From assembly GCA_021234155.1 (NCBI GenBank), contig JAJEKV010000003.1:27571166-27635165 (forward strand): 64,000 nucleotides of DNA, in the 5' to 3' direction. A program made the position numbers and the translations under genes. This stretch comes from Isoetes taiwanensis (lineage: Eukaryota > Streptophyta > Lycopodiopsida > Isoetales > Isoetaceae). The notes under the pieces are model-generated. The model was not told the origin of the DNA, did no database searches, and was given only the letters and a program-made list of their open reading frames with translations. Of the stretch, positions 24,121 through 52,039 are shown one piece after another. Each line of letters opens with the position of its first letter. The stretch's first letter is position 1.

Positions 24121-24234
24121 TCATGGTGCACCCCCCTTGTTATGTAGAGATTGATCACAACCGTTGAATGTGAAATCAACGGTCCTAATGCAGCCACCCC
24201 GTCATTATCTAAGCACCCTCCTTATTATGTAGAG

Positions 24235-25195
24235 ATTGATCCTGGCCCCTCCAAGTTTTGAGGTGGCACAAGTATGGCCATCAGATTTGATGGGGGCATG
24301 CATGGCCATGGATGGGGGCATGCACCACATCCCCGGACCGTTAGATCGAAAAGGGAGGATAAATCCCGGCTCTTGATTTTTGTGAGGAAGGTGCAAGGAA
24401 GGTGTTAAAAAGTAAATTTGGTGTAGCAAATCTTAACTGTTAGATCAAAAGTTGAGCATAAACCCTAGCCATTAACTTTTGAATATTAAATTGATTTTTT
24501 TTTAAGGAGGTGAGGTGGCACCCTCACTAATAAAAAAGGTAATGAGGTGGCAAAGCATTTATGAATGGACTTTCTAGGAAGCTTCCTTTTGTTTAATCGG
24601 TTTCAAAGGCATGTAACTTGCGGTAGAGGGGTCGGATGAAGGCGAGACCCACGCCATTGGATTCCTCTCATCGAGAGCTTTCCAATGAGTGTTGCTTTGC
24701 CAGTATTTTGTCGCAACTACAGCCAACGTGATCAAATACTAAGAATCTTCTTGGAATATTTGAATTCCAAAGAATCTATGGTAAGTTGAGGGAATCTTTA
24801 TAGGATCTTTGGGATTCCAGAGAAATATCATGAGAATCTTAGAGAATCTATGGGCTTTGAGAATGTAAGGAAATCTAAGGGAACCTTGATAAAATCTTTA
24901 AGAACCTAGAGGAATCTTGATGGAATCTTGGGGAGTCTATAGAATATATAGGAACTAAAGGAATCTTAAGAGAATCTATAGGAATCTCAAGCGTTTCCTC
25001 GGGAATCTAGGGGGAATCTTCATAAAATCTTTAAGAATCTAGAGGAATCTTAATGAACTCTAGAATCTAGAAGAATCTTGATAGAATCTTGGAGAATCTG
25101 GAGGAATTTTCTAAGTTCTTGAAGAATCTAAAAGAATCTTTATAGAATCTTCACTTGATGGCTCAAAATTTGTACACTCCCTCATAGTACAATCA
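24235..25195. repeat. composite repeat unit 2
   Basis: Leader (24,240-24,740), satellite (24,740-25,150) and the tail TTTGTACACTCCCTCATAGT match unit 1 in order, with a shorter satellite. 'TTATGTAGAGATTGATC' occurs twice between the units (24,138 and 24,225), a possible duplicated junction. Confidence 0.75.
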
Positions 25196-26619: not shown

Positions 26620-27320
26620 AGGGGATAATTTTTGGAGTTTCTAAGCTCTTTACAAATGCTGGCTTACTAGATTTCTTCTATGCAGAGTCACCTGCATCGA
26701 GACTCAAATCTTCTAACCAAATTTTTGTCACTAGCTCTAGTAAGAATCAAATGTATCTTGCAGTTCCGTAGCATCACGCTAGCTGCAAAATTCATCAATA
26801 GCCTTTGACAAATTTTCACAAAAGAGCATCAGATTTATTCAAGGCGATTAGAGCTTCACGAATCCTGACATATAGGGCCTTCAAATCCTTAAACCGATTA
26901 CAGACGATTACAGACGCCCCAAACTCTGTTACGCAAATAAATGATGCCAGCGGGCTCACAGTACTCAAAGCAAGGTAAGAAAGACCCGCAACATAGCTCG
27001 AGAGGCATGTCCTATTCCATAGAATACAGAACATGGGCATAGCATCTTCAATTTCTTGGCAAAGCTTCTTCAGGCTATAGCGCCATAGCAACTGGGAACA
27101 AGGAATAGGGAACTGGGAACAGGGGGGCCGGAATGGATATGACAACCGGTTAGCCGGTTTCCACAGTGGCTGCCCCAACAATGGCCACCGCCAGTTTACA
27201 CTCGATAGTAAGTTTGGAGTAGTCATTGGCATATTCCTGGCATATACTGGCATATATCTGGAATATGCCATAAACCCACATGGACGAGGGCTTGCCCCCT
27301 AGGGACAACCCAAAAAACTA
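26620..27320 (+). repeat. duplicated segment A, second copy (NPF terminal exon and flank)
   Basis: Copy of 12,095-12,815. It starts inside the NPF terminal exon (IFGVSKLFTNA.LLDFFYAESPAS) and ends at AACTATG, where it passes directly into GTATTTAAGACGC, the first bases of GT31 locus copy 2. A 151-codon minus-strand ORF (26,816-27,271) is open here but broken in the other copy. It resembles nothing known. Confidence 0.8.
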
Positions 27321-30300
27321 TGGTATTTAAGACGCTTGTACTTGAAGGGGAAGAATGTTCAATTCTACTGAGAAAAGAAGCAAAATGCAATAGGAACAAG
27401 AGATGTCATTGTGAAGGGTATACTTATAATGCACCATTGAATGACTAGCTAAAGCTATGTTAGGTGTTACAAGGGGTCCTTGTTAGGCATAGCTCACCAA
27501 ATTCTATGCCTACATTGTCTATTGTCATCAAACTAAAAGGGGCCCTTGTTTGGCATAGCTCACCAAATTCTATGCCTACATTGTCTATTGTCATCAAACT
27601 AAAATCTTATATACCGACCCTCGAAAAGAAAACTGGCTTGAGATCCTGCCCCTTCATCCCACGCGCGCGTACTACGAGCCTAGGGGGCTATATTGCTTGA
27701 GATGGGCGGCACGAAGATCTGCCCTGCCAGAATGTTACCAAGCTTCAAATCGATCCAATAAAGACGCTGTATTGAGTAGATTGGGCGATGCCTGCAAACT
27801 TTTAAATCCTCAGATGATTATTCGGTCTAGCCCTTCCCCACGCGGCAATTAAGGTCATGATACAGAGTTGGGTTTTCTTGGATCAGACGTGGGTCATGCA
27901 GAATTTCTTGATAATTCATACTCTCAAAGGGGTTGCATCCGATCAGTAATTGCGGAGTTAGGCAAGGGGCTCTCGTAGCCCAATGAATAGGTGGAGCCAT
28001 AATAGTTGCGCAGACGGCGCCATGCATTCTTTGGAGTTTGTGTTGTAAAGGACTTTTAGGAAGAGAAGGAAATGATGGGCAATATACATTGGCGTTGTTG
28101 TTGAAGGTGATTGGCAGCAAGAAACTTGTGTACCACGATTATTAGAAGCGGTTTTTTCAGCTATTGCGCAACCCCGAGAAGCAATGCGAGCCAAGGCATT
28201 TGGGGTTTCGCCCGGCATGGGTTGTGGTGCTATGCTTTGCGAGCTTACGTGTAGGTCTTTTGTTCACTAACGGGTAAATCTCTAAGACGCATCTTACCGC
28301 CAATGTCAAACTAATAGCATATTGGTTGCATTGTTATAAGTTACACCGCAATGTGGGTATTCATATTGGATTCATAAGTTATCTAAAGACAATGGCTTTC
28401 TTACATAGGAATGCCAATCACACGCAAAATGCAGATGTGACAATAAAGATTGTGCTTTCTACATAGTTTGAGATCTACGCTTTTGCCCAGAAAAAAGGGA
28501 CCCTGAATATGGAAACTTGAAATGTGCTGGGAAAATATTATTTTGGGCGTTTAAACAATTGTAAAAACTATAAAATAGACAAGGACCAGGCAATTGAGAC
28601 TCTGAAATATCCGTTTTTCCAGAATGTGGATAACCGAGGAGAAGGACGTGATTCGATCTTATGTTCACATGAACAATGAACAACAGCAGGTGAAGATAGC
28701 AGAAGATCAGTGTGAGAAAAAGATGGTAGGTGTATGCATTAGTTGCAGTTTTTGTACATGTATGTTGTTTAAATGAAAGCCACAATGCAACATTTTCAGA
28801 AAGCAACAAGTGGGGAGGGAACAAGGAACATCTTGGATGAAGTCTCTAAGACGTATCAGGCTCTCAAGTGCGTCCTTGCAAGGGGTTTTGGCATTTAGCA
28901 TGTAACCTATCTGCAATTTTCACTCATAGGTTTCCTTCATGTTGTACGTTTTGTCATAGGCCACAGGTCTTTTTTATTGAATGTTTCCATTTTTTATAAA
29001 TGAATATCATTTAAATGTTTTAGCTTACAATTCTGGCAATCTTCCATTCTTTGTTTTCAAATATATCTTATCATGAAGTAGACATTGTAGAAAGGAAGTT
29101 TGAAAGTCTATTTGCCTTTGTAGTGCCACGGCAGGCAGTATTTTGGATCGTGCATTTGAAGCAGAAGAAGCACAGCGTAATGATTTTCTGAGGCTGGTAA
29201 CCATTAGCTTTTGATCTTGCTCCTCAATGCGTGTGTCTGTTTTGTGTCAAGTTGCAGTATCTGTTCTTTTGGATCACTATCAAGATTGGAATTTTTTTTT
29301 TTTTGAAGTTAAGGCAGATTTTGTATTTCAGATAGGAAATATTACAGCTTCTTGATTGCTCAACGATCAGATAAGAAAATAAGCACATAAAAACCCTGAA
29401 TGATCAGGGAAAACAAAGAACTGCTACAGTAGCAGATGAACAAATAAAAAAGTTTCAAGTGTACATATGCTCCTGTCGCAATCGTTGTTACCGTTGATGG
29501 CCAGATATACAATTGTAGAGCAAAAATGTTATCTCCAATCTTCTTAGCAATCTCTGAACAATCATAATGGAAGAGAAATCCAGAAAATCCAAGAAGAGTG
29601 TACAAATAAAATGTTGTCCAAAAACAGCAAATAACAATGTATTGCCATCATAAAGGCAAATGAGCCTCCTAGCTCGCCATGAATCAAAATGCTCTGTAGA
29701 CCAGGAAGCCCAAACTAGACTTCAGAAAAATTTGAGATCTGAAACTTGGTGCATTGTCGAAGAACACCCTAGGTCATCATACATGTATTATGCTGCTTTG
29801 AACAATCATTTATCCATACAAAGAACCAAGATCTCCCGCTTCTCAGTTCCCTATCTCTCATCCGAAAAAATTGCCCAGAACTACTGAGAATAATGAAGAT
29901 ATCTCACAAATATCTAAAATAGCCAGATGAAGAACAACAATATATCGAATAGACTGCCACTCTATTCATGCAAAGCTGCCACCTCCTTAAGTGCTACACA
30001 AACTGATCAACTTAAACTTCAATTTCTGGAAACTAGCATCATCAAAGCCTCATGAAATTACCATAAATCTGGTTAAGCTTAAGACAAGCCAACCGACCAG
30101 ACTATTCTCTAAAGCCCGGTTTAAAAATATAAATTGTTAAAAGCTTCTAGCTTTGTAATCCAGAACCAAAAAATGGCAACCAAAACTACCAGAAGAATCG
30201 AAACTTCTTGTTGCCTAATCTGCTTATTCCAGATACAACCGCCAGTAGGAAGTGAGAAAAGGATGAAGGAATCTTACCACCAGATATGCAAAAAATGTGA

Positions 30301-30899
30301 CAAAAAGCTCTGAATCAAAGCGGCAGAAATTCCCTCGCCTGGCCACCAGAATCATTGAAGGAGGTCTTTGCTGTTGCGGTAGTGCCATGGAGCGATTTTG
30401 CCGTGAAGGAGGGCTGGACGAGCCCTCCCAAAGCCCTAGCCGCATATTTTTTTTTCCAGTTAGCCCAAGATTCAAGATTGGAATTTACCAGATGCCAAGC
30501 TCAATAATATTAAACACACATTAGGATGGAGATAATGTAATGCCAAGCTTAATAAGTATAAAGGAAGAATATAACAGGCACGTTTAGTAGTCATCCACTT
30601 AACCATTTATACGCAAACAATGTACTACTTGATATGTAGTTGTTTTGACCTCACATGCATGCAAAGCTTATTGACTGTCAAGGTGCAAGCACTAAACTCC
30701 AGCAATTCAAACTTCAGCCATACTTAAGGTCAATGTGGGGGTTCTGATATGCGTATTTTAGATAGGCTGAAATGCAGACTAATTTTTTTTTGCCTCATTG
30801 CTGCTTCTTGCAAGCTCACAATAACTAATTCTATTTGCGTCTCGTCATTTCTTTATATGGGATTAAGATCCATTCTGTTTTCTTTTTACAAACTGGATC
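27320..30899 (+). pseudogene. GT31 beta-1,3-galactosyltransferase locus, truncated copy 2
   Basis: Exons retained are 28,623-28,725 ([15 protein letters not shown]), 28,800-28,867 ([15 protein letters not shown]) and 29,124-29,196 (ATAGSILDRAFEAEEAQRN). The exon with [15 protein letters not shown] and most of the GENLKKLE exon are deleted: sequence jumps from TTTCCTTCATGTTG to TACGTTTTGTCATAGG at about 28,945. An insertion (29,295-30,471) lies in the following intron. Similarity ends near 30,899, before the DxD exon. A 66-bp tandem duplication occurs in the upstream part (27,471-27,603). Non-functional. Confidence 0.92.
29280..30486 (-). mobile_element. retroposed insertion with poly(A) and 15-bp target duplication
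   Basis: The 15-bp sequence TCAAGATTGGAATTT occurs at 29,280-29,294 and 30,472-30,486 and flanks about 1.18 kb absent from the other two GT31 copies. A T-run at the left edge is the poly(A) tail of a minus-strand insert. The opposite end begins with GC-rich 5'UTR-like sequence, then an ATG-started frame (MALPQQQRPPSMILVARRGN, continuing with a hydrophobic stretch) to a stop at 30,224. The source gene is not recognised; a GTAAG near 30,285 suggests that an intron may have been retained. LINE-type target-primed retroposition fits all marks. Confidence 0.85.
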
Positions 30900-31647
30900 A
30901 ACTTTTCTCGCAAGAGATAAGGGCTTATGCTCATCTAAAGAAATGAGTTCTATCTCTACTCATATATATAGTACAACGGCCTTGGGCCCAAAATAGGTGT
31001 GTGGCAAGTCTTGTTACCAACTCCTGGATCAGAGCCAACTCCTGGACTACAGTTTATTAAATGCTTAATGCAGCAAGTTGAATCAGATGATGTACTGAAA
31101 AAATATACTTACACATAAGGATGCTTTTGAAAATGAGATGTAACATCCCGTAAATTAAAAATGTCCCTTAAATGAAAAATGCCCAATGCAATTTGGAAGG
31201 GCTATTTTGAACATGAAATATTTCATTTCTTCTAAAATTTAAAGCATTATTATAGACAATAGCTCATTATTGATCCATCTCTCAAGTCAATTTGATTGCT
31301 AGGCCTTCCTTACATTCATATCATGCTACAGCCTCATGGTACTTTAATATGCTTTAATACCACGAAAGCATTTTTTAAAGTCTATAACATTGTTGTGACA
31401 TATGTTTTTAAATTCTATAGGAAGTAGATTCATACCACATAGTAAGTCTTGCACTTAGGTACTTCATGATGGTACCAACAAGTTGCAGATTTTACCATTG
31501 CCCATCCTCTGCAACCAAATATGTCTATGCATCCTCGAAATAAACATAGTTTTGCATCCATTCCAACATGATGATGTTATTCGACATCTCATGAGGTGGT
31601 TCAACATGTCAACAACCACTTGGCATCACAACAAGATAATGGTCATT

Positions 31648-32090
31648 TTGCGACGTGGGCTTGTGACGTTCCTGCGACGTGACGTCGCAATTGACGTGAC
31701 CATGCGACGTCAATGCGACGTCACGTCGCAGGAACGTCGCATGCGACGTGTACTGCGACGTCTGACACTCGTGACCTGGCGGTGGATTTCGGTGCCAAGT
31801 GGACGACAGTTGCCACATTTGCGACGTCATGTCGCATGCGACGTCGCGTCACTTGGTCTATCTGTCATGCCAGGTGGACTGGGGCGCCGGGTGAACGCAT
31901 GTGTGTCACGCCGGTGGATGTTCGGCGGCGTGACGCCGCGATGCGGCGTGGACGCCGCATGCGCGACGGACGTGACATTACGTAACGATGACACGCCGAT
32001 GCGTATTTGCCGATGTAACGCCAAGTCGTAGGTGACCTGGCAGGTGACCATTGACAATATGTCGCGTGCGACGTATACAACGACGTCAAA
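31648..32090. promoter_or_regulatory. left subterminal palindrome array (GCGACGT)
   Basis: Dense copies of GCGACGT and ACGTCGC, often fused into ACGTCGCATGCGACGT, alternate with related GCGGCGT/ACGCCGC forms toward the interior. In CACTA elements such subterminal repeats are the binding sites of the element's TnpA-like protein. The CpG content is far above the surrounding host DNA. Overlapping ORFs here on both strands are artefacts. Confidence 0.75.
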
Positions 32091-32119
32091 AACTCATTTC
32101 TTAGTTGGGTGAACATGTG

Positions 32120-35100
32120 TGGTCTTCTGGCCACGGAACTTGCTCCCCAGGGCAATGTCGACGTTCTGAGTCCATTGGCAGAGCCAAATCGCGGTTCCAG
32201 AGAGGGGAGGTCGCCCGTCCGTCTCTAGGGCCTTGGGGAGAGGAAATTCGGGGCAAGCAGCTTCCGAGGGGATTTTAGGGTCCTTGCTCTGGCGTCAACA
32301 CCCCACTCCACGTCAAGACACGACGCAAGGTCCCGGCCGAATCTGATAAGGAGAGGGCCTCCGAAACGTAAACCCTGTGGGTTGCCAGGTTCTAGAATGG
32401 TTTGCGTTTTGGGGGCCGAGACTTGGTCTGTTGCACTTGGGGGACGGCCGAGAAGCCGCAGTAGAGAATATGGAGCAAGGGGAACCGACAGAGCGGAGTT
32501 TGGGCTGTCCTCCTCCCGATGTGGCAAGTAGAAGTCTAGGGGGCGCTTTTTGCGGTGGCAAGACATTCATAAATTCGCAATTAATGCATTGTACGAAAAT
32601 AAATTCTGATTTTTTTGCCATTTGGATTCCTAATTCATCTCCAAAGACATGACCCAATTTTCAAAAATTTTCTGAGAAGGTCTAGGTCAAAGGGTTAGCA
32701 TTAGAAGCGGGGGGGCAGCGGCTTGGGTGGCAACCGAAGTTGGCACCCTTCCCCAAGTCAAACGAGGCCGGGACCTTGCATAGATCCCTCACAAGAGGGG
32801 AGAGTCCGGACCCCAAGAGGCGGGATCCAAAAAGTTCCCCGAGGCGACCCTTCCTCGGCGGGGAGCCCGGTTCCCCTATCCGACCGTTGGATCCTCCGAT
32901 TCGGGGGCCCCTCTTCGGGAAGGCCCAAAAGATTCCGTGATCGGTCGGGAGAACTTGTCAAACCGCGGGGCGCCCCGAGGTCGTGGGAGGCTTCGGAATG
33001 GCAAATCGACCCGCCAAATCGTCAGGAATGGCTAAATTACCCTAGGGAGCAAGTTACAAGGTCGGTTTTGCAAAAGAAAGAAACACTCACGCCCTCCACG
33101 ACAGTATCCCGCATCCACATCCTAGGCCAATTGACTACGAGTGTGATGGAAGTGAGGTCGGGTGGTCTTTCGGCCCACGGGAACCGGGGTCCCTGGGGCA
33201 ATGTCGACGTTTCGAGTCCATTGGCGAGCCAAATCTTGATTCGGAGAGGGGACATCGCCCGGATCCATCCCGTGGCATTGGGAGAGGAAATTCGGGGCAA
33301 GCGGCTTAGGGGGATTTTAGGGTCCTTGCTCGGTGTCAAAAACCCCACTCCCACGTCAAGTCGCCCGCAAGGTCTGGCCGAATCGACAGGAGAGGGCCTC
33401 AAACGTAAACCCCGTGGGTTGCGGGTTCTAGAAGGGTTTTGCGTTTTGGGGGCGAGACTTGGTCTGTTGCACTTGGGACCTGGCCGAGAAGCTGCAACCG
33501 AGAATATGGAGCAAGGGAAACTGACGGAGCGGAGTTTGGGCCTGTCCTCCTCCCGATAGTTAATGCATTGTACGAAAATAAATTCTGATTTTTTGCCAGC
33601 TGGATTCCTAATTCATCTCCAGCACACAGCCCAATTTTCGAAATTTTCGGAGAAGGTCTAGGTCAAAGGGTTAGCATTAGAACGGTCGGGGCAGCCCGTT
33701 GCAGGGCAACCGAGCTGGCACCCTTCCCCAAGTCAAACGAGGCCAGGACCTTGCAGGGATCCCTCACAAGAGGGGAGAGTCGGACCCCAAGAGGCGGGAT
33801 CCAAAAAAGTTCCCGAGGCAGCCCTTCCTGGCAGCGCTCCCCACCCTCCCGGAGCCCGGTTCCCCTATCCGACCGTTGGATCCTCCGTTCAGGGGCCCCT
33901 CTTCGGGAAGGCCCAAAAGATTCCAGATCGGTCCGGGAGAACTTGTCAAACCGCGGGGCGTCCTGAGGTCGGCCTTGTATAAACCGCAGTGTTTTGTCGT
34001 TCGGGCACCGGGGAGGCTCCGGAATGGCAAATCGACCCTGCCAAATCGTCCGAAATGGCGAAATTACCCTAGGGAGCAAGTTACAAGGTCGGTTTTGCAA
34101 AAGAAAGAAACACTCACGCCCTCCACGACAGTATCCCGCATCCACATCCTAGGCCAATTGACTACGAGTGTGATGGAAGTGAGCTACTTTGGCGCTTCTT
34201 GGAGGTCGGGTGGTCTTCGCCACGGAACCGGGTCCCTGTGGCAATGTCGACGTTTGAATCCATTGGCGAGCCAAATCGCGGTTCGGAGAGGGACATCGTC
34301 CGGTCCATCCCGTGGCATTGGGAGAGGGAATTCGGGGCAAGCGGCTTAGGGGGATTTTAGGGTCCTTGCTCGGTGTCAAAACCCCCACTCCACGTCAAGT
34401 CACAGCGCCAAGGTCCTGGCCGACCGACAAGGAGAGGGCCCAACGGCGTAAACCCCGTGGGTTGCCGTGTTCTAGAAGGGTTTGCGTTTTGGGGGCGAGA
34501 CTTGCTCTGTTGCACTTGGGACTGGCCGAGAAGCCGCAGCCAGAAGAATACGGAGCAAGGGGACTGACGGAGCCGGAGTTTGGGCCTGTCCTCCTCCCGA
34601 TGTGGCAAGTAGAAGTCGGGGGGCTTTTGCAAATGGTAAGACATTCATAAATTCGCAATTAATGCATTGTACGAAAATAAATTCTGATTTTTTGCCATTT
34701 GGATTCCTAATTCATCTCCGGACACAGCCCAATTTTCGAAATTTTTGGAGAAGATCTAGGTCAAAGGGTTAGCATTAGAACGGTCGGGGCAGCCCGTTGC
34801 GGGGGCAACCGAAGTTGGCACCCTTCCCCAAGTCAAACGAGGCGGGGACCTTGCAGGGGGATCCCTCACAAGAGGGGAGAGTCCAGACCCAAGAGGCGGG
34901 ATCCAAAAAGTTCCCGAGGCAGCCCTTCTGGCGGCGCTCCCGGGGGGCTGGCGCTAACGACCACCCTCCCGAGCCTGGTTCCCCTATCCGACCGTTGGAT
35001 CCTCCGTTCGGGGGCCCCTCTTGGGAAGGCCCAAAAGATTCAGTCGGTCCGGGAGAACTTGTCAAACCAAGGGCGCCCCGAGGTCGGCCTTGTATAAACC

Positions 35101-38100
35101 GCAAGTGTTTTGTCGTTGCTTTGGAGACGCACCGGGAGGCTCGGAATGACAAATCGACCACCGCCAAATCGTCCGAAATGGCGAAATTACCCTAGGGAGC
35201 AATTACAAGGTCGGTTTTGCAAAAGAAAGAAACACTCACGCCCTCCACGACAGTATCCCGCATCCACATCCTAGGCCAATTGACTACGAGTGTGATGGAA
35301 GTGAGCTACTTTGGCGCTTCTTGGAGGTCGGGTGGTCTTCTGGCCACGGAACTGGGTCCCCAGGGCAATGTCGACGTTCTGAATCCATTGGCAGAGCCAA
35401 ATCGCGGTTCCGGAGAGGGGACATCGTCCGTCCATCCCCAGGGCATTGGGAAGAGGAAATTCGGGGCAAGCAGCTTCCGGGGGGATTTTAGGGTCCTTGC
35501 TCTGGTGTCAAAACCCCCACTCCACGTCAAGTCACGGCGCAAGGTCCTGGCCGAATCTGACAAGGAGAGGGCCTCCGAAACGTAAACCCTGTGGGTTGCC
35601 AGGTTCTAGAAGGGTTTGCGTTTTGGGGGCCGAGACTTGCTCTGTTGCACTTGGGACCTGGCCGAGAAGCTGCAGCCGAGAATACGGAGCAAGGGGACCT
35701 GACGGAGCGGAGTTTGGGCCTGTCCTCCTCCCGATGTGGCAAGTAGAAGTCGGGGGGCGCTTTTGCAGTGGTAAGACATTCATAAATTCGCAATTAATGC
35801 ATTGTACGAAAATAAATTCTGATTTTTTGCCAGCTGGATTCCTAATTCATCTCCAGCACACAGCCCAATTTTCGAAATTTTCGGAGAAGATCTAGGTCAA
35901 AGGGTTAGCATTAGAACGGTCGGGGCAGCCCGTTGCAGGGCAACCGAGTTGGCACCCTTCCCCAAGTCAAACGAGGCCAGGACCTTGCAGGGATCCCTCA
36001 CAAGAGGGGAGAGTCCAGACCCCAAGAGGCGGGATCCAAAAAAGTTCCCGAGGCAGCCCTTCCTGGCAGCGCTCCCCCGGGGGGGCTGCGCGCTAATGAC
36101 CACTTTCCCGGAGCCTGGTTCCCCTATCCGACCGTTGGATCCTCCGTTCAGGGGCCCCTCTTCGGGAAGGCCCAAAAGATTCCAGATCGGTCCGGGAGAA
36201 CTTGTCAAACCGCGGGGCGTCCTGAGGTCGGCCTTGTATAAACCGCAGTGTTTTGTCGTTCGGGCACCGGGGAGGCTCCGGAATGGCAAATCGACCCTGC
36301 CAAATCATCCGAAATGGCGAAATTACCCTAGGGAGCAATTACAAGGTCGGTTTTGCAAAAGAAAGAAACACTCACGCCCTCCACGACAGTATCCCGCATC
36401 CACATCCTAGGCCAATTGACTACGAGTGTGATGGAAGTGAGCTACTTTGGCGCTTCTTGGAGGTCAGGTGGTCTTCTGGCCACGGAACTGGGTCCCCAGG
36501 GCAATGTCGTTCTGAGTCCATTGGCAGAGCCAAATCGCGGTTCCGGAGAGGGGACATCGTCCGTCCATCCCCAGGGCATTGGGGAGAGGAAATTCGGGGC
36601 AAGCAGCTTCCGGGGGGATTTTAGGGTCCTTGCTCTGGTGTCAAAACCCCCACTCCACGTCAAGTCACGGCGCAAGGTCCCGGCCGAACCGACAAGGAGA
36701 GGCCTCAAACGTAAACCCCGTGGGTTGCCGTGTTCTAGAAGGGTTTTGCGTTTTGGGGGCGAGACTTGCTCTGTTGCACTTGGGACTGGCGAGAAGCCGC
36801 AGCCGAGAATACGGAGCAAGGGGACCTGACGGAGCGGAGTTTGGGCCTGTCCTCCTCCCGATGTGGCAAGTAGAAGTCGGGGGGCGCTTTTGCAGTGGTA
36901 AGACATTCATAAATTCGCAATTAATGCATTGTACGAAAATAAATTCTGATTTTTTGCCAGCTGGATTCCTAATTCATCTCCAAAGACATGGCCCAATTTT
37001 GAAATTTTGGAGAAGATCTAGGTCAAAGGGTTAGCATTAGAACGGTCGGGGCAGCCCGTTGCAGGGCAACCGAGTTGGCACCCTTCCCCAAGTCAAACGA
37101 GGCCAGGACCTTGCAGGGATCCCTCACAAGAGGGGAGAGTCCAGACCCCAAGAGGCGGGATCTAAAAAAGTTCCCGAGGCAGCCCTTCCTGGCAGCGCTC
37201 CCCCGGGGGGGCTGCGCGCTAATGACCACCCTCCCGGAGCCTGGTTCCCCTATCCGACCGTTGGATCCTCCGTTCAGGGGCCCCTCTTCGGGAAGGCCCA
37301 AAAGATTCCAGATCGGTCCGGGAGAACTTGTCAAACCGCGGGGCGTCCTGAGGTCGGCCTTGTATAAACCGCAGTGTTTTGTCGTTCGGGCACCGGGGAG
37401 GCTCCGGAATGACAAATCGACCCTGCCAAATCGTCCGAAATGGCGAAATTACCCTAGGGAGCAATTACAAGGTCGGTTTTGCAAAAGAAAGAAACACTCA
37501 CGCCCTCCACGACAGTATCCCGCATCCACATCCTAGGCCAATTGACTACGAGTGTGATGGAAGTGAGCTACTTTGGCGCTTCTTGGAGGTCGGGTGGTCT
37601 TCTGGCCACGGAACTGGGTCCCCAGGGCAATGTCGACGTTCTGAATCCATTGGCAGAGCCAAATCGCGGTTCCGGAGAGGGGACATCGTCCGTCCATCCC
37701 CAGGGCATTGGGAAGAGGAAATTCGGGGCAAGCAGCTTCCGGGGGGATTTTAGGGTCCTTGCTCTGGTGTCAAAACCCCCACTCCACGTCAAGTCACGGC
37801 GCAAGGTCCTGGCCGAATCTGACAAGGAGAGGGCCTCCGAAACGTAAACCCTGTGGGTTGCCAGGTTCTAGAAGGGTTTGCGTTTTGGGGGCCGAGACTT
37901 GCTCTGTTGCACTTGGGACCTGGCCGAGAAGCTGCAGCCGAGAATACGGAGCAAGGGGACCTGACGGAGCGGAGTTTGGGCCTGTCCTCCTCCCGATGTG
38001 GCAAGTAGAAGTCGGGGGGCGCTTTTGCAGTGGTAAGACATTCATAAATTCGCAATTAATGCATTGTACGAAAATAAATTCTGATTTTTTGCCAGCTGGA

Positions 38101-40953
38101 TTCCTAATTCATCTCCAGCACACAGCCCAATTTTCGAAATTTTCGGAGAAGATCTAGGTCAAAGGGTTAGCATTAGAACGGTCGGGGCAGCCCGTTGCAG
38201 GGCAACCGAGTTGGCACCCTTCCCCAAGTCAAACGAGGCCAGGACCTTGCAGGGATCCCTCACAAGAGGGGAGAGTCCAGACCCCAAGAGGCGGGATCCA
38301 AAAAAGTTCCCGAGGCAGCCCTTCCTGGCAGCGCTCCCCCGGGGGGCTGCACGCTAATGACCACCCTCCCGGAGCCTGGTTCCCCTATCCGACCGTTGGA
38401 TCCTCCGTTCAGGGGCCCCTCTTCGGGAAGGCCCAAAAGATTCCAGATCGGTCCGGGAGAACTTGTCAAACCGCGGGGCGTCCTGAGGTCGGCCTTGTAT
38501 AAACCGCAGTGTTTTGTCGTTCGGGCACCGGGAGGCTCCGGAATGGCAAATCGACCCTGCCAAATCGTCCGAAATGGCGAAATTACCCTAGGGAGCAAGT
38601 TACAAGGTCGGTTTTGCAAAAGAAAGAAACACTCACGCCCTCCACGACATTATCCCGCATCCACATCCTAGGCCAATTGACTACGAGTGTGATGGAAGTG
38701 AGCTACTTTGGCGCTTCTTGGAGGTCGGGTGGTCTTCGCCCGCGGAACTTGGTCCCCGTGGCAATGTCGACGTTTCGAGTCCATTGGCGAGCCAAATCGC
38801 TTGATTCGGAGAGGGGACATCGTCCGTCCATCCCCTGGGGCATTGGGGAGAGGAAATTCGGGGCAAGCTTAGGGGGGATTTTAGGGTCCCGCTGCGGCGT
38901 CAACACCCCCACTCCACGCCAAGTCACCGCAAGGTCCCGGCCTAGAATCGACAGGGAGAGGGCGTGGGTTGCTGTGTTCTAGAAGGGTTTGCATTTTGGG
39001 GGCCGAGACTTGGTCTGTTGCACTTGGGACCTGGCCGAGAAGCCGCGGTAGAGAATACGAACAAGGGAACCGGCCGAGCCGGAGTTTGGGCCTGTCCCTC
39101 CTTCCGATGTGGCAAATAGAAGTCGGGGGCTTTTAAAGTGGTAAGACATTCATAAATTCGCAATTAATGCATTGTACGAAAATAAATTCTGATTTTTTGC
39201 CAGCTGGATTCCTAATTCATCTCCAGCACACAGCCCAATTTTCGAAATTTTCGGAGAAGGTCTAGGTCAAAGGGTTAGCATTAGAACGGTCGGGGCAGCG
39301 GATTGCGGGGCAACCGAGTTGGCACCCTTCCCCAAGTCAAACGAGGCCGGGGACCTTGCGGGGATCCCTCACAAGGGGGGAGAGTCCGGACCCCAAGAGG
39401 CGGGATCCAAAAGTTCCCGAGGCAGCCCCTTCCTGGCAAAGCCTCCCGGGTCAGACGCTAATGACCACCCTCCCGGAGCCCGGTTCCCCTATCCGACCGT
39501 TGGATCCTCCGTTCAGGGGCCCCTCTTCGGGAAGGCCCAAAAGATTCCAGATCGGTCCGGGAGAACTTGTCAAACCGCGGGGCGTCCTGAGGTCGGCCTT
39601 GTATAAACCGTAGTGTTTTGTCGTTCGGCACCGGGAGGCTCCGGAATGGCAAATCGACCCTTCCAAATCGTCCGGAATGGCGAAATTACCCTAGGGAGCA
39701 AGTTACAAGGTCGGTTTTGCAAAAGAAAGAAACACTCACGCCCTCCACGACAAAGATCCCGCATCCACATCCTAGGCCAATTGACTACGAGTGTGATTGA
39801 AGTGAGCTACTTTGGCTTCTTGGAGGTCGGTGGTCTTCTGGCCCCGCAGAACTTGGTCCCTAGGGCAATGTCGACGTTCGAGTCCATTGGCGAGCCAAAT
39901 CCTTGTTCCGGAGAGGGGAGGTCACCCGTCCGGCCCCTGTGGCCTTAGGGAGAGGAAATTTGGGGCAAGCAAAGGGGGATTTTAGGGTCCGTGCTCAAGG
40001 CCAACACCCCCACTCCAACGGGCGCAAGGTCCGCCCAAATCGACAAGGAGAGGGCCTCCAAACGTAAACCCCGCGGAGTTGCCGTGTTCTAGAAGGGTTT
40101 GCATTTTGGGGGCTGAGTTTTGGTCTTCGGCCACTGAGAACTTGGTCCCTAGGGCAATGTCGACGTTTCGAGTCCATTGGCGAGCCAAATCGTGGTTCCG
40201 GAGAGGGAGGGCGCCCGTCCCGTCCCCATGGCCTTAGGGAGAGGAAATTCGGGGCAAGCAGCTTCCGGGGGGATTTTAGGGTCCGTGCTCGGCGTCAACA
40301 CCCCCATTGCACATCAAGTCCGGCGCAAGGTCCCGGCCAAATCGACAAGGAAAGGGCCTCAAGCGTAAACCATGTGAGTTGTCAGGTTCTAGAAGGGTTT
40401 GCGTTTTGGGGGCCATGTCTTGGTCCATTCTGATTAGGGTTGGGACTGGCCGAAAAACTGCCCCGGAGAACACGGAGCAATAGGAACCCGGCGGAACGGA
40501 GTTTGGGCCTGTCCTCCTCCCGATGTGGCAATTAGAAGTGGGGCTTTTGTAAATGGCAAGACATTCATAAATTCGTAATTAATGCATTGTACGAAAATAA
40601 ATTCTGATTTTTTGCATTTGGATTCCTAATTCATCTCCAAAGATACAGCCCAATTTTGGAATTTTGAGGAGAAGGTCTAGGTCAAAGGGTTAGCATTAGA
40701 GCGGTCGGGGCAGCTGTTGCGGGGCAACCAAAGTGGCACCCTCCCCAAGTCAAGCGAGGCCGGGACCTTGCGGGGGATCCCTCACAAGAGGGGAGAGTCC
40801 AGGACCCGAAAAGGCGGGATCCAAAAAGTTCGAGGCAGCCCTTTCTTTGCGGCGCTCAGGGGGCCGCAGACGCTTAATGACCACCCTCCGGGAGCTCGGT
40901 TCCCCTATCCGACCGTTGGATCCTCCGTTCAGGGGCCCCTCTTCGGGAAGGCC
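32120..40953. repeat. array of eight ~1.13-kb tandem repeats inside the CACTA element
   Basis: The phrase GGTCAAAGGGTTAGCATTAG recurs at 32,685, 33,661, 34,759, 35,895, 37,021, 38,157, 39,265 and 40,680, giving periods of 976, 1098, 1136, 1126, 1136, 1108 and 1415 bp. The last interval includes an internal duplication near 39,820-40,260. Blocks 35,217-35,895 and 37,479-38,157 appear identical at an offset of 2,262 bp, so the middle of the array is a dimeric higher-order repeat. The repeat is GC-rich. Many ORFs occur in several frames on both strands, but they shift between units and resemble nothing known; they are not counted as genes. Confidence 0.93.
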
Positions 40954-41116
40954 TCAGGACTGTCTAAATAAGCCTAGGGACAAACTTTAATGAGCATCAC
41001 ATTTAAAAAAGACGTCAAAAAAAAATATATATATATATATAAAGTCCATAACATCGCTATAACAAAATACGTCGCGTGGACGTCGCATGTGACGTCACGT
41101 CGCATGCGACGTTCTG
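40954..41116. repeat. AT microsatellite and internal GACGTC palindromes
   Basis: After the satellite array comes (AT)n at 41,027-41,040. Then follows another small cluster of GCGACGT/ACGTCGC palindromes at 41,070-41,115, directly ahead of the transposon gene. This third cluster could act as a promoter-proximal site for the element's own DNA-binding protein. Confidence 0.55.
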
Positions 41117-44116
41117 TAATTTTTTGAAACTGCGCGCGGCCAGCTTTCCCGCACCTTTTCTTTTCGCTTCCTCTTCGAGCTTTTTGGGCGATCTGCGGCG
41201 CTACTACCCTGATCGACCTGCAAGCAACTATTCTAAGGTTAGTACATCATATTTTTTAGATTGAATAGGTTTTTTGGATTGAAAGGTGCATGCCTAACCT
41301 AGGTTTTTTGTGTTCTTCATTTTTCTTCTTCACTCATTTCTTCTCTTCTATTCTTTCCCCTTCCTTTCTTCTTTCCTTCTCTTCTTTCCTTCTCTTCTTC
41401 TCTCTTCTTCTCTCATTTCTTCTAAATTCTTCTCTTCTTCTCTCATTTCTCTTCTTTTCTTCTCTTCTTTCCCTTCTCTTCTTTCTTCTTCTCTTCTTCT
41501 CTCATTTCTTCTCTCATTTCTTCTCTTCTTCTCTCATTTCTCTTCATATTTCTCTTCTTTCCTTCTCTTCTTCTCTTCTTCTCTCATTTCTTCTCATTTC
41601 TTCTCTTCTTCTCTCATTTCTCTTCATATTTCGTTTCCTTCCCTTCTCTTATTTCTTCCCTTCTTCCTCCTTCTATTCTTTCTCTTCCCCTGTCGATTCT
41701 ATTCTTCTCTTCTCTTATTCTATTCTTCTCGATTCTATTCTTCTCTTCTCTTATTCTATTCTATTATTCTCTTCTCTTATTCTTATTCTTTTCTCTTATT
41801 CGATTCTATTCTTCTCTTCTCTTCTCTTCGATTCTATTCTTCCTTTCTCTTCTTCCCTTCTTCGATTCTTTCTTCTTCTCTTATTTTTTTTATTTCTTCT
41901 TTCCTTCTCTTATTTTTCTCTTCATATTTCTTTTCCTTCCCTTCTTCCCTTCTTCCTCCTTCTATTCTTTCTCTTCCCCTTCGATTCTATTCTTCTTCCC
42001 CCCCCTCCCCATCATTTCTTCTTCTCTCCTTCGTGCTTTCCCTTCCCATCTTCGACCCTTCCCTTATTTCTTCTCCCCCCCTCTCTTGTTTTTCCCACCC
42101 TTATCTTCTTCTTCGATTATTTTTTTCTTTTCTTGATTTTCTATTTTTTTCCACTTTAATTTTTTTATTTTTTTCGATCTTCTTCTTCTTTTGTTCTTAT
42201 TCTTTTAACTTTTTGTTGCAGGTTTGGCAGCTGTCCTTTTTTATTTGGGCCCGGCAGGATCTTGTCTGCACACGTTCTTCATTTGGTAAGTTCATCACAC
42301 TTGCATTTTTTTTATAGCTTTAAATAGGTTAAAAAAAATTGACGGAGTGGCTTGTTCAAGGGCACGGGTCGGCTCCACCTAGAGTGGAGAGGACCATGTG
42401 TACCCGGGTTTGAAGTCCACTTCCACTATGATCAAATTTTATTTTCCTAGGTTAAGGAGTGGCTTGTTCAAGGGCACGGTCGGCTCCACCTAGAGTGGAG
42501 AGGATCACTTACCCGGGTTCAAGTCGACTTCGACTTGTTATTTGTTAGGTCTAAAATAAAATTGTAGTGGCTTGTTCAAGGGCACGGTCGGCTCCATCTT
42601 GCGTGGAGAGGATCAGATGTCCGGGTCCAAGTCCACTTTTCTTCTCATTCTTAGGTAGAGGTGGCTACGGCAAGGACATGGTCGGCTCCACCGCGAGTGG
42701 AGGGGACCAGGTGTTCGGGCCTTAGTTCACATTCATTGTCAGTTTTAGCCAGAGGTAGCTAGGGCAAGGACATGGTCGGCTCCACCATGAGTGGAGGGGA
42801 CCAGATGTTCGGGCCCTAGTCCCACATTTCTTATTATTTTTGTTAGGTAGAGGTGGCTAGGGAAAGGGCATGGTCGACTCCACCATGAGTGGGGAGGACC
42901 ATGTGTTCGGGTCCTAATCATACTCTAGCCTAATCCAGCCGATCTAATCTAGTCTATCTAGCTTATTCCATCAGTCCAAAGCCTCCTCTATTATCTAGCC
43001 AAATCTAGCTTTTGATCCGAGTAAGGGTCTATTCGCACCCATGGTCTGGTGCAAGGAACTTGGAGGGAGATTTCAACAGGTAAATATATATCCACTACGT
43101 ACCAAACATTTCTTTGGTTGCAGCATGTTAAAGATGCTCATTCTCTTATTACTTCCCAGGTCAAGAAGTAGTGGAGCAACGGACTCACAACGTTCAAGAT
43201 CGCGACGATCATCACATTGTTCGGGATCCCAAGAACATCGTGAATCGCCTGACTTGGAGAGGTCCGGATCCCCGACGTCATGTCACTGAAGAAGAGCGTC
43301 CATTTCGCTTTGTTTTAGACACGTAAGTCTTTGTTTTAGAAAAAGTAAAGAAGTTTAACTGGAAGAAGCTCACTTCGATGATGGGCGAGCTTCTACGAAA
43401 AAGGAGGTACATGACCTAGTCATAGTCTTGTTTTTATTATTTTAATATTGCGTTGATCTATCGATTTATGTCAAAGGCAAAGAGTGGTCAAGGAACTGAA
43501 GAAGACTTGCGAAAAAGTTGGAGGCGATTGGTCAAAAGTCCCTAAACCACTTAATCTCCACAAGGAAGATATCAAGGTATTTTCTTATTCGAACGTGCAA
43601 ATGATCCAGAACAGAAACATAGAGCTCGGACCGACAAAGCAACTGCAAGTGAACGACATCCGTCTCATTTGGGCTCCAGCGGTCGGAAAGGGTTTCGCCA
43701 TAGATTCGTAAGAGCTATATTAGTTCACATTAATTTTAATAAGAACTTTAAATGTCATTAGCTAATACTCGTTATATTGTCATAGACCTGGCTATACGGG
43801 TTTCCCCCTAGCAAGGAGCACGTACAAATAGCCACGGAACGTGGAGCTGTTTATCTGTATCAACAGTTATACGAAGAGGGAACTGTCCCACATCACGGGA
43901 ATGCGGGGGTGCGTTGTAGAAAATTATTATAATTCTATGAACTACATTAATGCCATATTCTTTTGGTTTTTATAGGAAGCAGTGGCGGAGATGAATCAAG
44001 CCCTAGACGAGGACATGGGACGCGGGGTCGGCGAGGGATCTGCAAACTATGGTGGAGGGCCATCCAATCGCAACCCCGAATCGGATGACTACTCCACTGA
44101 ATCTGACAGAGATTAG
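41117..44116 (+). CDS. intron-bearing gene of the CACTA-like element, product unidentified
   Basis: Likely exons, judged by splice signals, are a leader ending 41,237 (AAG|GTTAGT) and 42,222-42,295 (after TTGTTGCAG). A further exon, 43,160-43,322, encodes VEQRTHNVQDRDDHHIVRD and ends HVTEEERPFRFVLDT. 43,340-43,407 encodes KKFNWKKLTSMMGELLRKR. 43,480-43,710 encodes RVVKELKKTCEKVGGDW and WAPAVGKGFAIDS. The terminal part at 43,785-44,116 ends SDDYSTESDRD and a stop. Exon phases do not join perfectly at one junction, so the model is provisional. The acidic C-terminus and downstream sequence recur in the inverted element at 45,062. I do not recognise the domain; a DNA-binding accessory protein of the transposon is a guess. 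Confidence 0.45.
41290..42215. repeat. polypyrimidine (TTCTC)n intronic tract
   Basis: Almost pure TTCTTC/TCTCTT sequence ends at a perfect 3' splice site (TTTTTGTTGCAG). It forms most of the first intron of the transposon gene. The long Ser/Phe/Leu-rich open frames on the plus strand are compositional artefacts. Confidence 0.9.
42345..42925 (+). repeat. six tandem ~100-bp tRNA-like modules
   Basis: Copies start near 42,352, 42,458, 42,568, 42,660, 42,753 and 42,850. Each has GTGGCTTGTTCAAGGGCA or GTGGCTAGGGCAAGGACA (A-box-like). A CTCCACC...GAGTGGAG hairpin and CCGGGTTCAAGTCC or CGGGTCCAAGTCC (B-box-like) follow. The first three keep the better B-box. They lie within an intron of the transposon gene. 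Three inverted copies occur at 46,050-46,360 in the related element. They look like a tandemly amplified tRNA-derived SINE head. Confidence 0.65.
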
Positions 44117-44149
44117 CTCTAGGCTAAAAGGGTGGATACTCCCCTTAAC

Positions 44150-44264
44150 GAGTCTTTTGTGATTATTTAAAAATATAAATATAAAAATACTTTTGTGATT
44201 ATTTAAAAATATAAATATAAAAATACTTTTGTGATTATTTAAAAATATAAATATAAAAATATAA
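44150..44264. repeat. three tandem copies of a 36-bp AT-rich unit
   Basis: The 36-bp unit CTTTTGTGATTATTTAAAAA continued by TATAAATATAAAAATA is repeated three times just after the stop codon of the transposon gene. The inverted relative at 45,062 shows the same unit once at its truncated edge. Confidence 0.9.
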
Positions 44265-44379
44265 ATGCCCTTTTGCTCCTTGTACATCATATTGTGATAA
44301 TTATCTAAGCCAAACATTTTTTTTATTTTTTTTTTATTTTTTTTAAAGACATTTTTTTATTTTTTTTATTTTTTTTCCT

Positions 44380-44720
44380 TCACGTCGCATGCGACGTATC
44401 CACGTGGCTTTTTTATTGCCACGTGGCTTTTACGGCACACGTGGATTTTTTTGATATTCCACGTGTATATTCCACGTGTCACGTCGCATGCGACGTATAC
44501 ACGTGGCTTTTACGCTACAGGTGGATTTTTTTGGTATTCCACGTGTATATTCCACGTGTATATTCCACGTGTATATTCCACGCGTGTCACGCGTCGATGC
44601 GACGCCGTCACGCGTCATCGCCCGTGTCACGTCACGCGGCGCGTCTCGGTCTCCCCGACGCGACGTGTGTCACGCCGCCGACGTCGCGATAGACATGATG
44701 ACCTAGACGTCGCTAAATGA
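44380..44720. promoter_or_regulatory. right subterminal palindrome array
   Basis: ACGTCGCATGCGACGT palindromes alternate with ATTCCACGTGTAT repeats (an E-box/G-box-like CACGTG core repeated about five times) up to the right terminal inverted repeat. The array corresponds to the left array and completes the symmetric ends of the element. Confidence 0.7.
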
Positions 44721-45061
44721 CCTTTCTCCTGTTGTGCATCAAGTCATTAATGTCAAGTATTTATTAGCATATTGCTATATGTATATGTTCACCACTCCTT
44801 CTAGAACAAGTATTTAAACACAACTGCAATATAAGACATTACTATTAAAGCCTAGCTCTGATACCGAAATCTATATACAAATCCACTATAACACACTATT
44901 GCCAAAACTGCACAATATCGAGCAATTGTTACTGTCTCCCTTCTCCTAACTCTCTCTTCATTCCATCTCAAATATAGCTAGGTATTATAAGTTTGTCTAC
45001 AACTTCATGGTTGGTGCACAGAACAATACCTATGCACGGCAACGCCGGGCACCGTTACTAG

Positions 45062-46974
45062 TTATATTTATATTTTTAAATAATCAGAAAAGACTCGTTA
45101 AGGGGAGTATCCACCCTTTTAGCCTAGAGTTAATCTCTGTCAGACTCGTTGGAGTCGTCATCCGAGTAAGTGGTTTGAAAATGCCTCTCAACCTCATCTT
45201 GATGTTCGCGATCAGATGGCTCTCCAAAGTCAAAGTTTGCCAAGTTTTTCAATCGTATTCAGGATCTGCATATGGCATTAATGGAATGTTGGTTCCTCGC
45301 TCCACTTCTATACGCGTGCCGGAGATACGGCCGAATCAAGCTTCTGGACAAATGCGGCTCCGCATAATGATGTATCTTCTTCCCCAATAAGCAAATTCTT
45401 GATCTATAGGGATAGTTAAGTCTACCGACCACAAGCCAAATGTCTTGCGGTCCCTAGCAAAGGGTCGGACTAATCTTTGCAATTCTTCAGGAATTTCAAA
45501 CTTGAGCAGTGAGGCCAAGCGTTCTTGGAAAATTTGCGACACATATAATGTTCTCATGATTGTAGCACTTCATGTTCTTTCATGCAGGGGAACACTCAAC
45601 GTTGAGCGGCATCCATACACATTAGTGATGAATCGGATTACTGCTTCGGTTTCATATGCCTCTATGGACAACATTAAATCAAAATCCACATCTATTTTGG
45701 AGGAGACATCAGCATCATCTACCTACATATTTAGATATCATAAACATCTGAAATATATGCTTGAACTGGGAGAGATACTGTAACAAAAAAAAATAATAAA
45801 ACAAATAATCATTGTATACCAACCTGATATCCATGACGAGCATCAGATCTAGTGGATTGTTCAAATGTATCAAATCTTATCACATGGTCTTCAACAACTG
45901 TTCTAATTCGCCGCTTCAGCCCCATACATCTTTTACAATCGCAAACTATTTTGTCCCTCTGCCAATTACAAAAGGTAAGTACTATATACTGCACAATAGT
46001 TTGAACGGCCGTGATAGATACATATGGTAGTATAAAACGGACAGAATTGGGTCCGGACACCTGGTCCTCTCCACTCAAGGTGGAGCTGACCATGCCCTTT
46101 CTCGAGTACGATCCTTATATGAGTTTCTATTGCAATAAAGAGTTTGGAGACGCGCTTAGACCAGATACATAGAGTCCCCTCCACTCAAGGTGAAGTCGAC
46201 ATATGACCTTGACTATGCGACACCTCAATTTTGTAATCTACATTGTACTCAGAAAGGTATGAAGGTGAGTTTGAGCCCGGCGCACCTGGTCCTCTCCACT
46301 CAAGGTGGAGGCGACCGTGTCCTTTCTTGACTACGCGCATCTGGTCCTCTCCTAGCTTACATATGTCTAGGCTACTAAATACAAGAATCAGTCACTCACA
46401 TGCAACTGTTCCGCAACTGATGCCTTTCCTGGTACCAAGACAGCATTAATCTACCTCCTGGCCATTTCCAGATGTCGATCAAGCCTATGACCATGGCAAT
46501 CCATGTAGGGCAGCAACAAGTGTAAGATTTTGTTAAAAAAAAGAACAACAAAGGTGCTAGCTAGGAAGAGGAGCGAAAAAAAATAACAATGAAGGACAGG
46601 AAAGGGCTACTTATATAAAAATGCCATTACATCACAGGGCACGCGACTTGCATGCGACGCCTCGTCAACGGCCAGATGCTAGGTCACATGCCCGTTGGCA
46701 CCACGTGGCAGCGAAGTACTGACGTGGCATGCGTCCTTTTTTGCGACGTGACGTCGCATGCGATGTGACGTCGCCAACGTGCCACCTGGCGTGACGAACT
46801 CGCCCAGGACAACGCGACGTCGTGGCATACGCGACGTCAGACGTCGCAGTACACGTCGCAGCGACGTGTACGCGACGTGACGTCGTATTGACGTGACTTG
46901 GTCACGTCAAATGTGACGTCGTGTGACCCAGACGTCGCAATCCCACGTCGCTAAATGACCATTCTCTTGTTGTG
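45062..46974 (-). mobile_element. truncated CACTA-like element in inverse orientation
   Basis: The terminal repeat at 46,942-46,974 (reverse complement CACAACAAGAGAATGGTCAT) begins a minus-strand element. Its subterminal ACGTCGC palindromes lie at 46,640-46,965, and it carries three inverted tRNA-like modules and a decayed gene. The sequence 45,080-45,180 is the reverse complement of the 3' end of the gene at 44,060-44,160, including SDDDSNESDRD. It breaks off at 45,062, where the Helitron terminus lies, so the far end is missing. Confidence 0.75.
45130..46100 (-). pseudogene. decayed CACTA-encoded ORF with transposase-associated-like motif
   Basis: A minus-strand exon at about 45,828-45,965 reads RDKIVCDCKRCMGLKRRIRT and then VVEDHVIRFDTF. 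This CxCxxC...VxDHxI pattern is like the N-terminal transposase-associated domain of plant CACTA proteins. The next exon, at 45,590-45,720, reads VDDADVSSKIDVDFDLML and ETEAVIRFITNVYG. 45,336-45,557 gives EELQRLVRPFARDRKTFGLW. The last, near 45,130-45,240, reads FGEPSDREHQDEVERHFQ and ends in an acidic tail. Frames are broken between them. The domain assignment is tentative. Confidence 0.5.
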
Positions 46975-51692: not shown

Positions 51693-52039
51693 TAAAATTT
51701 GTGTAGTTTCTTTTGATCTTCTTCCAACTCTTTGATATGCTTTATTGCTAAATAGTTGTCTATTTTTTGCACTACCATTACATGATAGAATAGGATGTTG
51801 TGTTCCTGAATAACTCATTGTTGTTAAGGTAACATACTATCAACTTCACCCTTTTAAACTACAATAACTTCGTACTCATTTGAACATATAATATACGATC
51901 TTTAAATAGCAAGGGACTTGTATAAAATATATGTATAACTTCAGTTTGCCTACTCCTTTCTCCAATTCATTGATTTCCTTTCTTTCATGCACGACTTTGT
52001 CAAGTGGTATTTTCTTTGGTTCAAACATGACAGTGGATG
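51693..52039. other. unassigned stretch
   Basis: AT-rich, no ORF or repeat recognised. It forms the boundary to the GT31 locus copy 3. Confidence 0.4.

What the first reader, a model, noticed from the sequence alone, without database searches (positions are those of the whole stretch)
32120..40953. Dimeric higher-order satellite captured inside a transposon
Eight ~1.13-kb GC-rich units form an array. Units two positions apart (offset 2,262 bp, for example 35,217 vs 37,479) look identical while neighbours differ by small indels, which indicates recent unequal exchange of a dimer. A satellite with higher-order structure inside a DNA transposon could be a seed from which genomic satellites spread.
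Basis: seen in the sequence. Interest (0 to 1): 0.75.

Follow-up and report, generated by a model that had tools for sequence, protein, structure and literature searches.

The report
Tandem array inside plant jumping gene
A plant "jumping gene" of the CACTA type carries a built-in row of about eight 1.1-kb repeats, and the same row, with about one to sixteen or more repeats, travels inside its relatives across the genome; that is a neat example of a known kind of thing, and the claimed two-unit higher-order pattern is just one recent local duplication.

Summary
The array is real: eight GC-rich ~1.13-kb units at 32,119-40,953, inside a complete CACTA-type DNA transposon (31,627-44,736, 13.1 kb, ends CACAACAAGA/TCCTGTTGTG, CAT target duplication). 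The dimeric higher-order claim fails: units 4 and 6 are 99.6% identical (exact 922-bp match at offset 2,262), but the other complete-unit pairs two apart are 92-95% alike and identity does not rise at lag 2.

The array is not a one-off capture. At up to 3 mismatches its left and right junction motifs occur 274 and 281 times in the genome and a 35-bp unit core 3,378 times (controls 0). All six copies read at both ends have matching 3-bp target duplications; all six lack tnp2. Array length varies from about 1 unit to at least 16. In two tnp2-bearing relatives the array follows the transposase gene. First units mostly resemble other elements' first units, so the array probably predates family spread. 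I saw no long free satellite, but the census is incomplete and one 17-kb array lacked recognisable element flanks. Best reading: a CACTA family with a constitutive internal tandem array that grows and shrinks by unequal exchange. A 171-bp satellite array inside CACTA elements of Chenopodium quinoa is the closest precedent.

The parts
31624..31626 (.). target-site duplication CAT, left copy
   Evidence: sequence
31627..32118 (+). left terminal inverted repeat (CACAACAAGA...) and subterminal region with 14 GCGACG/CGTCGC motifs
32089..32117 (+). left array junction motif, 274 copies genome-wide at up to 3 mismatches
32119..40953 (+). tandem array of eight ~1.13-kb GC-rich units (boundaries set by me at 32119, 33076, 34103, 35225, 36361, 37487, 38622, 39725); no GCGACG/CGTCGC motif inside
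35163..36084 (+). exact 922-bp match to 37425-38346 (offset 2262): recent duplication linking units 4 and 6
37425..38346 (+). second copy of the exact 922-bp match
39725..40953 (+). composite last unit (unit positions 1-419 then 109-948); the same edge structure in 7 of 11 arrays whose right edge was read (not in C1019a, C1072, C31, C312)
40967..40998 (+). right array junction motif, 281 copies genome-wide at up to 3 mismatches
40954..41237 (+). promoter-side segment and putative first exon of the second gene; GCGACG/CGTCGC motifs from 41070; splice-donor-like AAG|GTTAGT at 41237/41238
   Evidence: promoter and exon inferred from sequence only
43136..44116 (+). putative coding exons of the second gene (short ORFs with splice-like borders, last ORF to 44113 then stop); no Pfam match
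44380..44736 (+). right subterminal region (8 GCGACG/CGTCGC motifs) and terminal inverted repeat ending TCCTGTTGTG
44737..44739 (.). target-site duplication CAT, right copy

Best explanation
The feature is the internal tandem array of a CACTA-type DNA transposon family in a plant genome (plant: inferred from the transposon domains). Shown: the window's element is complete at both ends (13.1 kb, inverted ends, 3-bp target duplication), has no detectable tnp2 transposase, and runs left end, array, putative second gene, right end. Shown: in two tnp2-bearing relatives the same array lies about 1 kb after the transposase gene, and in the one read to its right edge (C1072) it ends at a diverged copy of the segment before the second gene. 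Shown: the array edges are conserved while unit number varies from about 1 to at least 16. Inferred: the transposase acts on the ends and subterminal GCGACG repeats, which the array lacks, so the array is passively carried; unit number changes by unequal exchange or replication slippage, as in the recent u4/u6 duplication; the array existed in the common ancestor of the copies and spread by transposition, not mainly by forming free satellites.
For: Inverted ends and matching 3-bp target duplications in 6 of 6 elements read at both ends: CAT, GTT, TTT, TTC, AAT and GAT. None of these six has a tnp2, DUF4218 or DUF4216 match by blastn or tblastn (positive control C979). Left flank running into the first unit at 10 other loci among 40 scored (two of the ten partial); the whole right junction matched at 37 of 40 scored loci including this one. 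Genome counts at up to 3 mismatches: left junction 274, right 281, unit core 3,378, controls 0. tnp2 beside the array in C1072: PF02992 E=1.3e-28, DUF4218 E=1.9e-20. C979: terminal repeat and tnp2 fragment left of the array. Junction spacing 1.46-28.2 kb in 31 pairs, median 10.6 kb. A minimal element, C1029, has a ~1.4-kb array and TSD GAT. Nearest relative of the first unit is another array's first unit in 8 of 9 arrays, against 5 of 56 other units whose nearest relative is a first unit. 0 GCGACG/CGTCGC motifs in 8,835 bp of array against 14 in 492 bp of left end.
Against: The TIR starts CACAA, not the canonical CACTA. The second gene has no Pfam match. Most loci scored do not carry this left end: they match only from the array edge or inside it, because other elements have the other left flank or because the match is an inner unit. 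Nine sampled arrays hold 53 unit cores, about 5.9 each, while 3,378 cores over about 278 junctions is about 12, so up to half of all units lie in longer arrays, in arrays with lost or diverged junctions, or in free arrays. One 17-kb array (C96) has no recognised element flank. Within-array identity is only slightly above between-array identity (0.875 against 0.860), so exchange does not homogenise arrays strongly. No tnp2-bearing copy was read at both ends.
Confidence: 0.85

Rival explanations
1. A free satellite with dimeric higher-order structure was captured by one transposon and now spreads as satellite.
For: One near-identical pair at offset 2,262; C1072 recurrently contains a composite unit; one 17-kb array without recognised element flanks; a satellite array inside CACTA elements was read as capture in C. 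quinoa (PMC8978399 section 15).
Against: No lag-2 excess; same junctions in hundreds of places; first units related by position across elements; no run longer than about 21.6 kb among the first 100 of 756 exact hits, and that run holds two left junctions.
Confidence: 0.08
2. The array is a selected module of the transposon, for example an upstream regulatory array for the second gene or a spacer between the two genes, and copy number matters.
For: Present in both the tnp2-bearing and the tnp2-less type, before the second-gene segment wherever that right edge was read; junction motifs highly conserved; nearly invariant AT-rich blocks in units.
Against: An element with about one unit has a target duplication too, although it may have lost units after insertion (C1029); conserved blocks are those poor in CG/CHG sites, so mutational context may suffice; no subterminal-motif copies in the array; the three unit ORFs tried have no Pfam match.
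Confidence: 0.1
3. Unit number or unit differences at this locus are partly assembly artefacts in a methylated, GC-rich repeat.
For: Differences from the unit consensus (transitions, transversions and deletions alike) are about 1.7 to 3.2 times commoner at CG/CHG sites than at other C/G sites; one LTR pair nested in the C1046 array differs mainly in its 3' ~250 bp, with transversions and indels.
Against: Array length varies at many loci and the edges are consistent; positional kinship of first units is a signal that random error would not create; the first part of the LTR pair holds CG/CHG sites almost without differences, so gene conversion or real mutation fits too.
Confidence: 0.2

Closest known systems
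CACTA-like element Jozin with a 171-bp satellite array in Chenopodium quinoa (PMC8978399: passages, section 15)
   Same: CACTA superfamily element with tnp2 (Transposase_21) and a multi-kb tandem array inside complete or almost complete ends, found in several copies (5,550 bp, 32.5 monomers in the described one).
   Different: There the monomer is 171 bp and the array is near the 3' end; the authors read it as captured satellite and report arrays very often inside or near such elements. Here the unit is about 1.13 kb, the array lies after tnp2 and before a second gene, has the same junctions in hundreds of places, and survives in tnp2-less copies.
CficCl-61-40 satellite arising from tnp2 of Jozin (PMC7320549: passages, section 8), and Atenspm satellites of Arabidopsis as cited there
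   Same: Tandem arrays linked to the interior of CACTA/En-Spm elements.
   Different: Those monomers are ~40-bp pieces of tnp2 that make up a major satellite; here the unit has no seen coding origin and no large free satellite was found, with an incomplete census.
Tetris foldback transposon of Drosophila virilis (PMC4079207: abstract, section 19)
   Same: Internal tandem repeats of variable copy number inside a DNA transposon, with unequal crossing-over proposed.
   Different: Tetris repeats are ~220 bp within the TIRs and gave kb-size satellite-like arrays; here the array is inside of the terminal and subterminal repeats, and free arrays are not demonstrated.

Membership tests
CACTA (En/Spm) superfamily | terminal inverted repeats starting CACTA (canonical form recalled) | tested here: inconclusive
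   Left ends read CACAACAAGA in own, C1018, C935, C1019b (also C1042, C1046, C979); C1019a has CACAACAAGC and C1029 a 3-bp longer variant; right ends TC(C or T)TGTTGTG. So CACAA rather than CACTA
CACTA (En/Spm) superfamily | 3-bp target-site duplication | tested here: met
   6 of 6 elements read at both ends: CAT, GTT, TTT, TTC, AAT, GAT
CACTA (En/Spm) superfamily | subterminal short repeats in both orientations | tested here: met
   GCGACG/CGTCGC 14 times in the left 492 bp and 8 times in the right 357 bp
CACTA (En/Spm) superfamily | tnp2-type transposase in autonomous members | tested here: met
   Beside the same array in C1072: PF02992 E=1.3e-28, DUF4218 E=1.9e-20; decayed copy in C979. Not found in the window's element or the five other elements read at both ends
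Higher-order (dimeric) satellite | blocks of two monomers repeat, so lag-2 identity exceeds lag-1 identity throughout | tested here: not met
   Only u4/u6 of six lag-2 pairs; lag-1 0.898, lag-2 0.900 for segment A
Satellite DNA | long homogenised arrays independent of a transposon | tested here: inconclusive
   No long free array seen in a partial list (first 100 of 756 exact hits); one flank-less 17-kb array

The most novel reading that the evidence does not exclude
The array is not freight but an element-encoded, copy-number-tunable control region placed between the transposase gene and the second gene, kept in both tnp2-bearing and tnp2-less forms because it modulates expression or silencing of the element.
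Probability: 0.1. Interest if true: 0.6.

Novelty: new member of a known kind. Interest (0 to 1): 0.35.

Why it matters
It gives a clean system, with hundreds of dispersed copies, fixed edges and about one to sixteen or more units, for watching how a tandem array grows, shrinks and diverges when each copy starts from a transposition event. It also suggests that an array embedded in a transposon can reach thousands of units genome-wide without evident conversion into a large free satellite, a possible counter-example to the idea that such arrays readily seed satellites; a full census is needed to say so firmly.

Tried and rejected
Dimeric higher-order repeat: rejected. Element ending at 46,974, from the longer inverted pair 31,626/46,975: rejected because the bases outside do not match (CAT against AAG), while the end at 44,736 gives CAT/CAT. 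Coding origin of the unit: three ORFs tried (window 35,383-35,895, 35,823-36,407, 32,705-33,559) had no Pfam match at E up to 1; other ORFs were not tried. RNA genes: Rfam gave eight matches, all below the gathering score, to microRNA families in the inverted ends, none in the array. Second gene: no Pfam match at E up to 0.5; a likeness to plant Transposase_24 proteins is recalled, untested beyond that. Simple methylation-driven C-to-T decay as the cause of unit differences: not sufficient, since transversions and deletions rise too. Basecalling error as sole cause: not established. Read depth, copy number across individuals and centromere location could not be tested. The organism was not identified.
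Full report
OBSERVATION. The GC-rich block at about 32,119-40,953 is a tandem array. Composition rises to 0.55-0.58 GC per kilobase, against 0.34-0.50 in the rest of the window. Repeated 16-mers peak at spacings 2,262, 1,126, 1,135 and 1,136; repeat coverage runs from 32,119 to 41,113, the last part being terminal-repeat motifs. A 35-bp core occurs eight times. Aligned units give 4 substitutions and 3 indel events between u4 and u6 (99.6%), 97.2-97.3% for u4/u5 and u5/u6, and 85.7-95.0% for the remaining pairs. The offset-2,262 identity includes one exact 922-bp match, 35,163-36,084 versus 37,425-38,346. The other lag-2 pairs are u1/u3 87.4%, u2/u4 94.7%, u3/u5 92.4%, u5/u7 92.3% and u6/u8 87.2%. 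By lag, this array averages 0.898 (lag 1) and 0.900 (lag 2) in segment A, and 0.948 and 0.942 in segment B. The array is therefore not built of dimers; u4-u6 carry a recent duplication, and parts of u2 are also 98.6-99.1% like u4, u6 or the u6/u7 border.

THE ELEMENT. The array lies in an element with left end CACAACAAGA at 31,627 and right end TCCTGTTGTG at 44,736, flanked by CAT on both sides. The longer inverted pair reaching 46,975 belongs to a second, partial relative in reverse orientation; the triplet outside it is AAG and does not match. Among 40 loci scored with the left flank plus first unit, 10 others besides this one carry both (two of them only partly covered); the rest match only from the array edge or inside it. 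The full right junction matched at 37 of 40 scored loci, this one included. I fetched several copies. Target duplications match in 6 of 6 elements read at both ends: CAT, GTT, TTT, TTC, AAT and GAT; two of these six have a slightly altered left end (C1019a, C1029). For C1046, C1042 and C979 only the left end was read, for C1072 neither.

TWO TYPES. In C979 and C1072 the array has a different left flank, shared between them at about 94-97%; C1072 has a further ~6.9 kb inserted in it. That flank holds a tnp2 transposase: in C1072 PF02992 E=1.3e-28, DUF4218 E=1.9e-20 and a weak DUF4216 (1.9e-4, below the curated cut-off); in C979 a decayed copy (PF02992 5.2e-05, below cut-off; tblastn matches to the C1072 pieces). 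C979 has a terminal repeat at position 636, about 10 kb left of its array; that both belong to one element is presumed. In C1072 the array runs 19.9 kb to a diverged (74%) copy of the right-junction segment. So in this type the array lies after tnp2 and before the second gene. The six elements read at both ends have no tnp2, DUF4218 or DUF4216 match: they are tnp2-less. The second gene has splice-like short ORFs but no Pfam match.

NUMBERS. At up to 3 mismatches: unit core 3,378 (1,608 + 1,770), left junction 274, right junction 281, all reversed-pattern controls 0. Exact unit cores: 756. Pairing the first 100 exact left and first 100 exact right junctions listed gave 31 pairs spaced 1.46-28.2 kb, median 10.6 kb; the lists are partial, so unpaired ones mean little, and spacings include any nested insertion. 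One 28.0-kb case (C1046) contains an 11.5-kb insertion with LTR structure, leaving about 16.5 kb. The shortest, C1029, has about 1.4 kb of array and still a target duplication. C1072 has 16 unit segments.

FREE ARRAYS? Nine sampled arrays hold 53 cores, 5.9 each, below the genome ratio of about 12 per junction, so perhaps half of all units are not explained by arrays like those sampled. I therefore took seven arrays (my choice, not all such) from the first 100 exact hits that had no exact right junction in the list. Two (C31, C312) end in a diverged right junction; C379 is cut by an inverted-repeat sequence; C168, C223, C778 and C96 stop inside a unit. Left sides of five of these: C778 has the tnp2-type flank, C223 a 36-bp remnant of it at 94%, C379 only short similarity to the family's intron repeats about 2 kb away, C168's array ran past the stretch fetched, and C96 (about 17 kb) shows no element flank. 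So 4 of 7 are element-derived on at least one side, 2 unresolved, 1 possibly free. Among the first 100 exact hits the longest run is about 21.6 kb (C600) and holds two left junctions (runs read off the lists by eye).

HISTORY OF THE UNITS. In 65 unit segments from ten loci the nearest relative is in the same array for 27 of 63 against 8.5 expected, and mean identity is 0.875 within and 0.860 between arrays; for the other segment (42 units, seven loci) 17 of 42 against 6.0, 0.893 and 0.877. Homogenisation is thus weak. First units are nearest to another array's first unit in 8 of 9 arrays (C979's is not), while 5 of the 56 other units have a first unit as nearest relative. Last units of the window's type are nearest to another array's last unit in 6 of 8, but five of these six point to the same C1046 unit (counted from its listing). 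The edges thus look inherited by position, and the array probably existed before the copies spread.

MECHANISM. The GCGACG/CGTCGC motif of the subterminal regions occurs 14 times in 492 bp on the left, 8 times in 357 bp on the right, 4 times in the 160 bp after the array, and 0 times in 8,835 bp of array. That transposase proteins bind such subterminal repeats is established for En/Spm (recalled), not tested here. I infer that the array is carried passively and that unit number changes by unequal exchange or slippage. Unit differences concentrate at CG and CHG sites: segment A transition, transversion and deletion rates are 0.089, 0.068, 0.045 at CG, 0.094, 0.064, 0.035 at CHG, 0.030, 0.027, 0.021 at other C/G sites, and 0.047, 0.023, 0.024 at A/T. 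Conservation of the AT-rich blocks may therefore be mutational. In the LTR pair nested in C1046 differences crowd in the 3' part, which fits either conversion or consensus error; reads are needed.

KNOWN RELATIVES. A 5,550-bp array of 171-bp monomers inside CACTA-like elements of C. quinoa is the nearest precedent (PMC8978399, passages and section 15). A tnp2-derived 40-bp satellite, and Atenspm satellites cited with it, are further ones (PMC7320549, passages, section 8). Tetris in Drosophila is an analogue (PMC4079207, abstract, section 19). A review lists the Jozin case among TE-derived repeats (PMC9659126, passages). The finding is a new member of that kind, with a longer unit and the same junctions in hundreds of places.

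Noticed in passing
window 45062-46974: A second partial CACTA-like relative in reverse orientation with its own terminal repeat and a putative gene but no array; part of it matches C979 (L014:4239-5823) at 84%.
   Followed up: partly
window 42344-42916 and 46044-46324: Repeated ~94-108-bp motif with GGTCGGCTCCACC...GTGGAGAGGACC inside the putative second gene's intron, with inverted copies in the neighbouring relative.
   Followed up: no
window 22995-25153 and 144-389: Long degenerate tandem arrays of about 10- and 31-bp GAATCT-type units, in opposite orientation to each other.
   Followed up: no
window 16158-18276, 27320-30900, 52037-54976: Three regions sharing pieces 92-98% alike: copies of another repeat family.
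   Followed up: no
L025-L027 (C1046), inside the array: An 11.5-kb insertion with LTR structure nested in the array, AAGAC on both sides; its two LTRs (91.8%) differ mostly in the 3' ~250 bp.
   Followed up: partly
L005 (C1042), oriented 7.54 kb onwards: A second copy of the array starts abruptly inside the second gene of the first element: nested or recombined elements.
   Followed up: no
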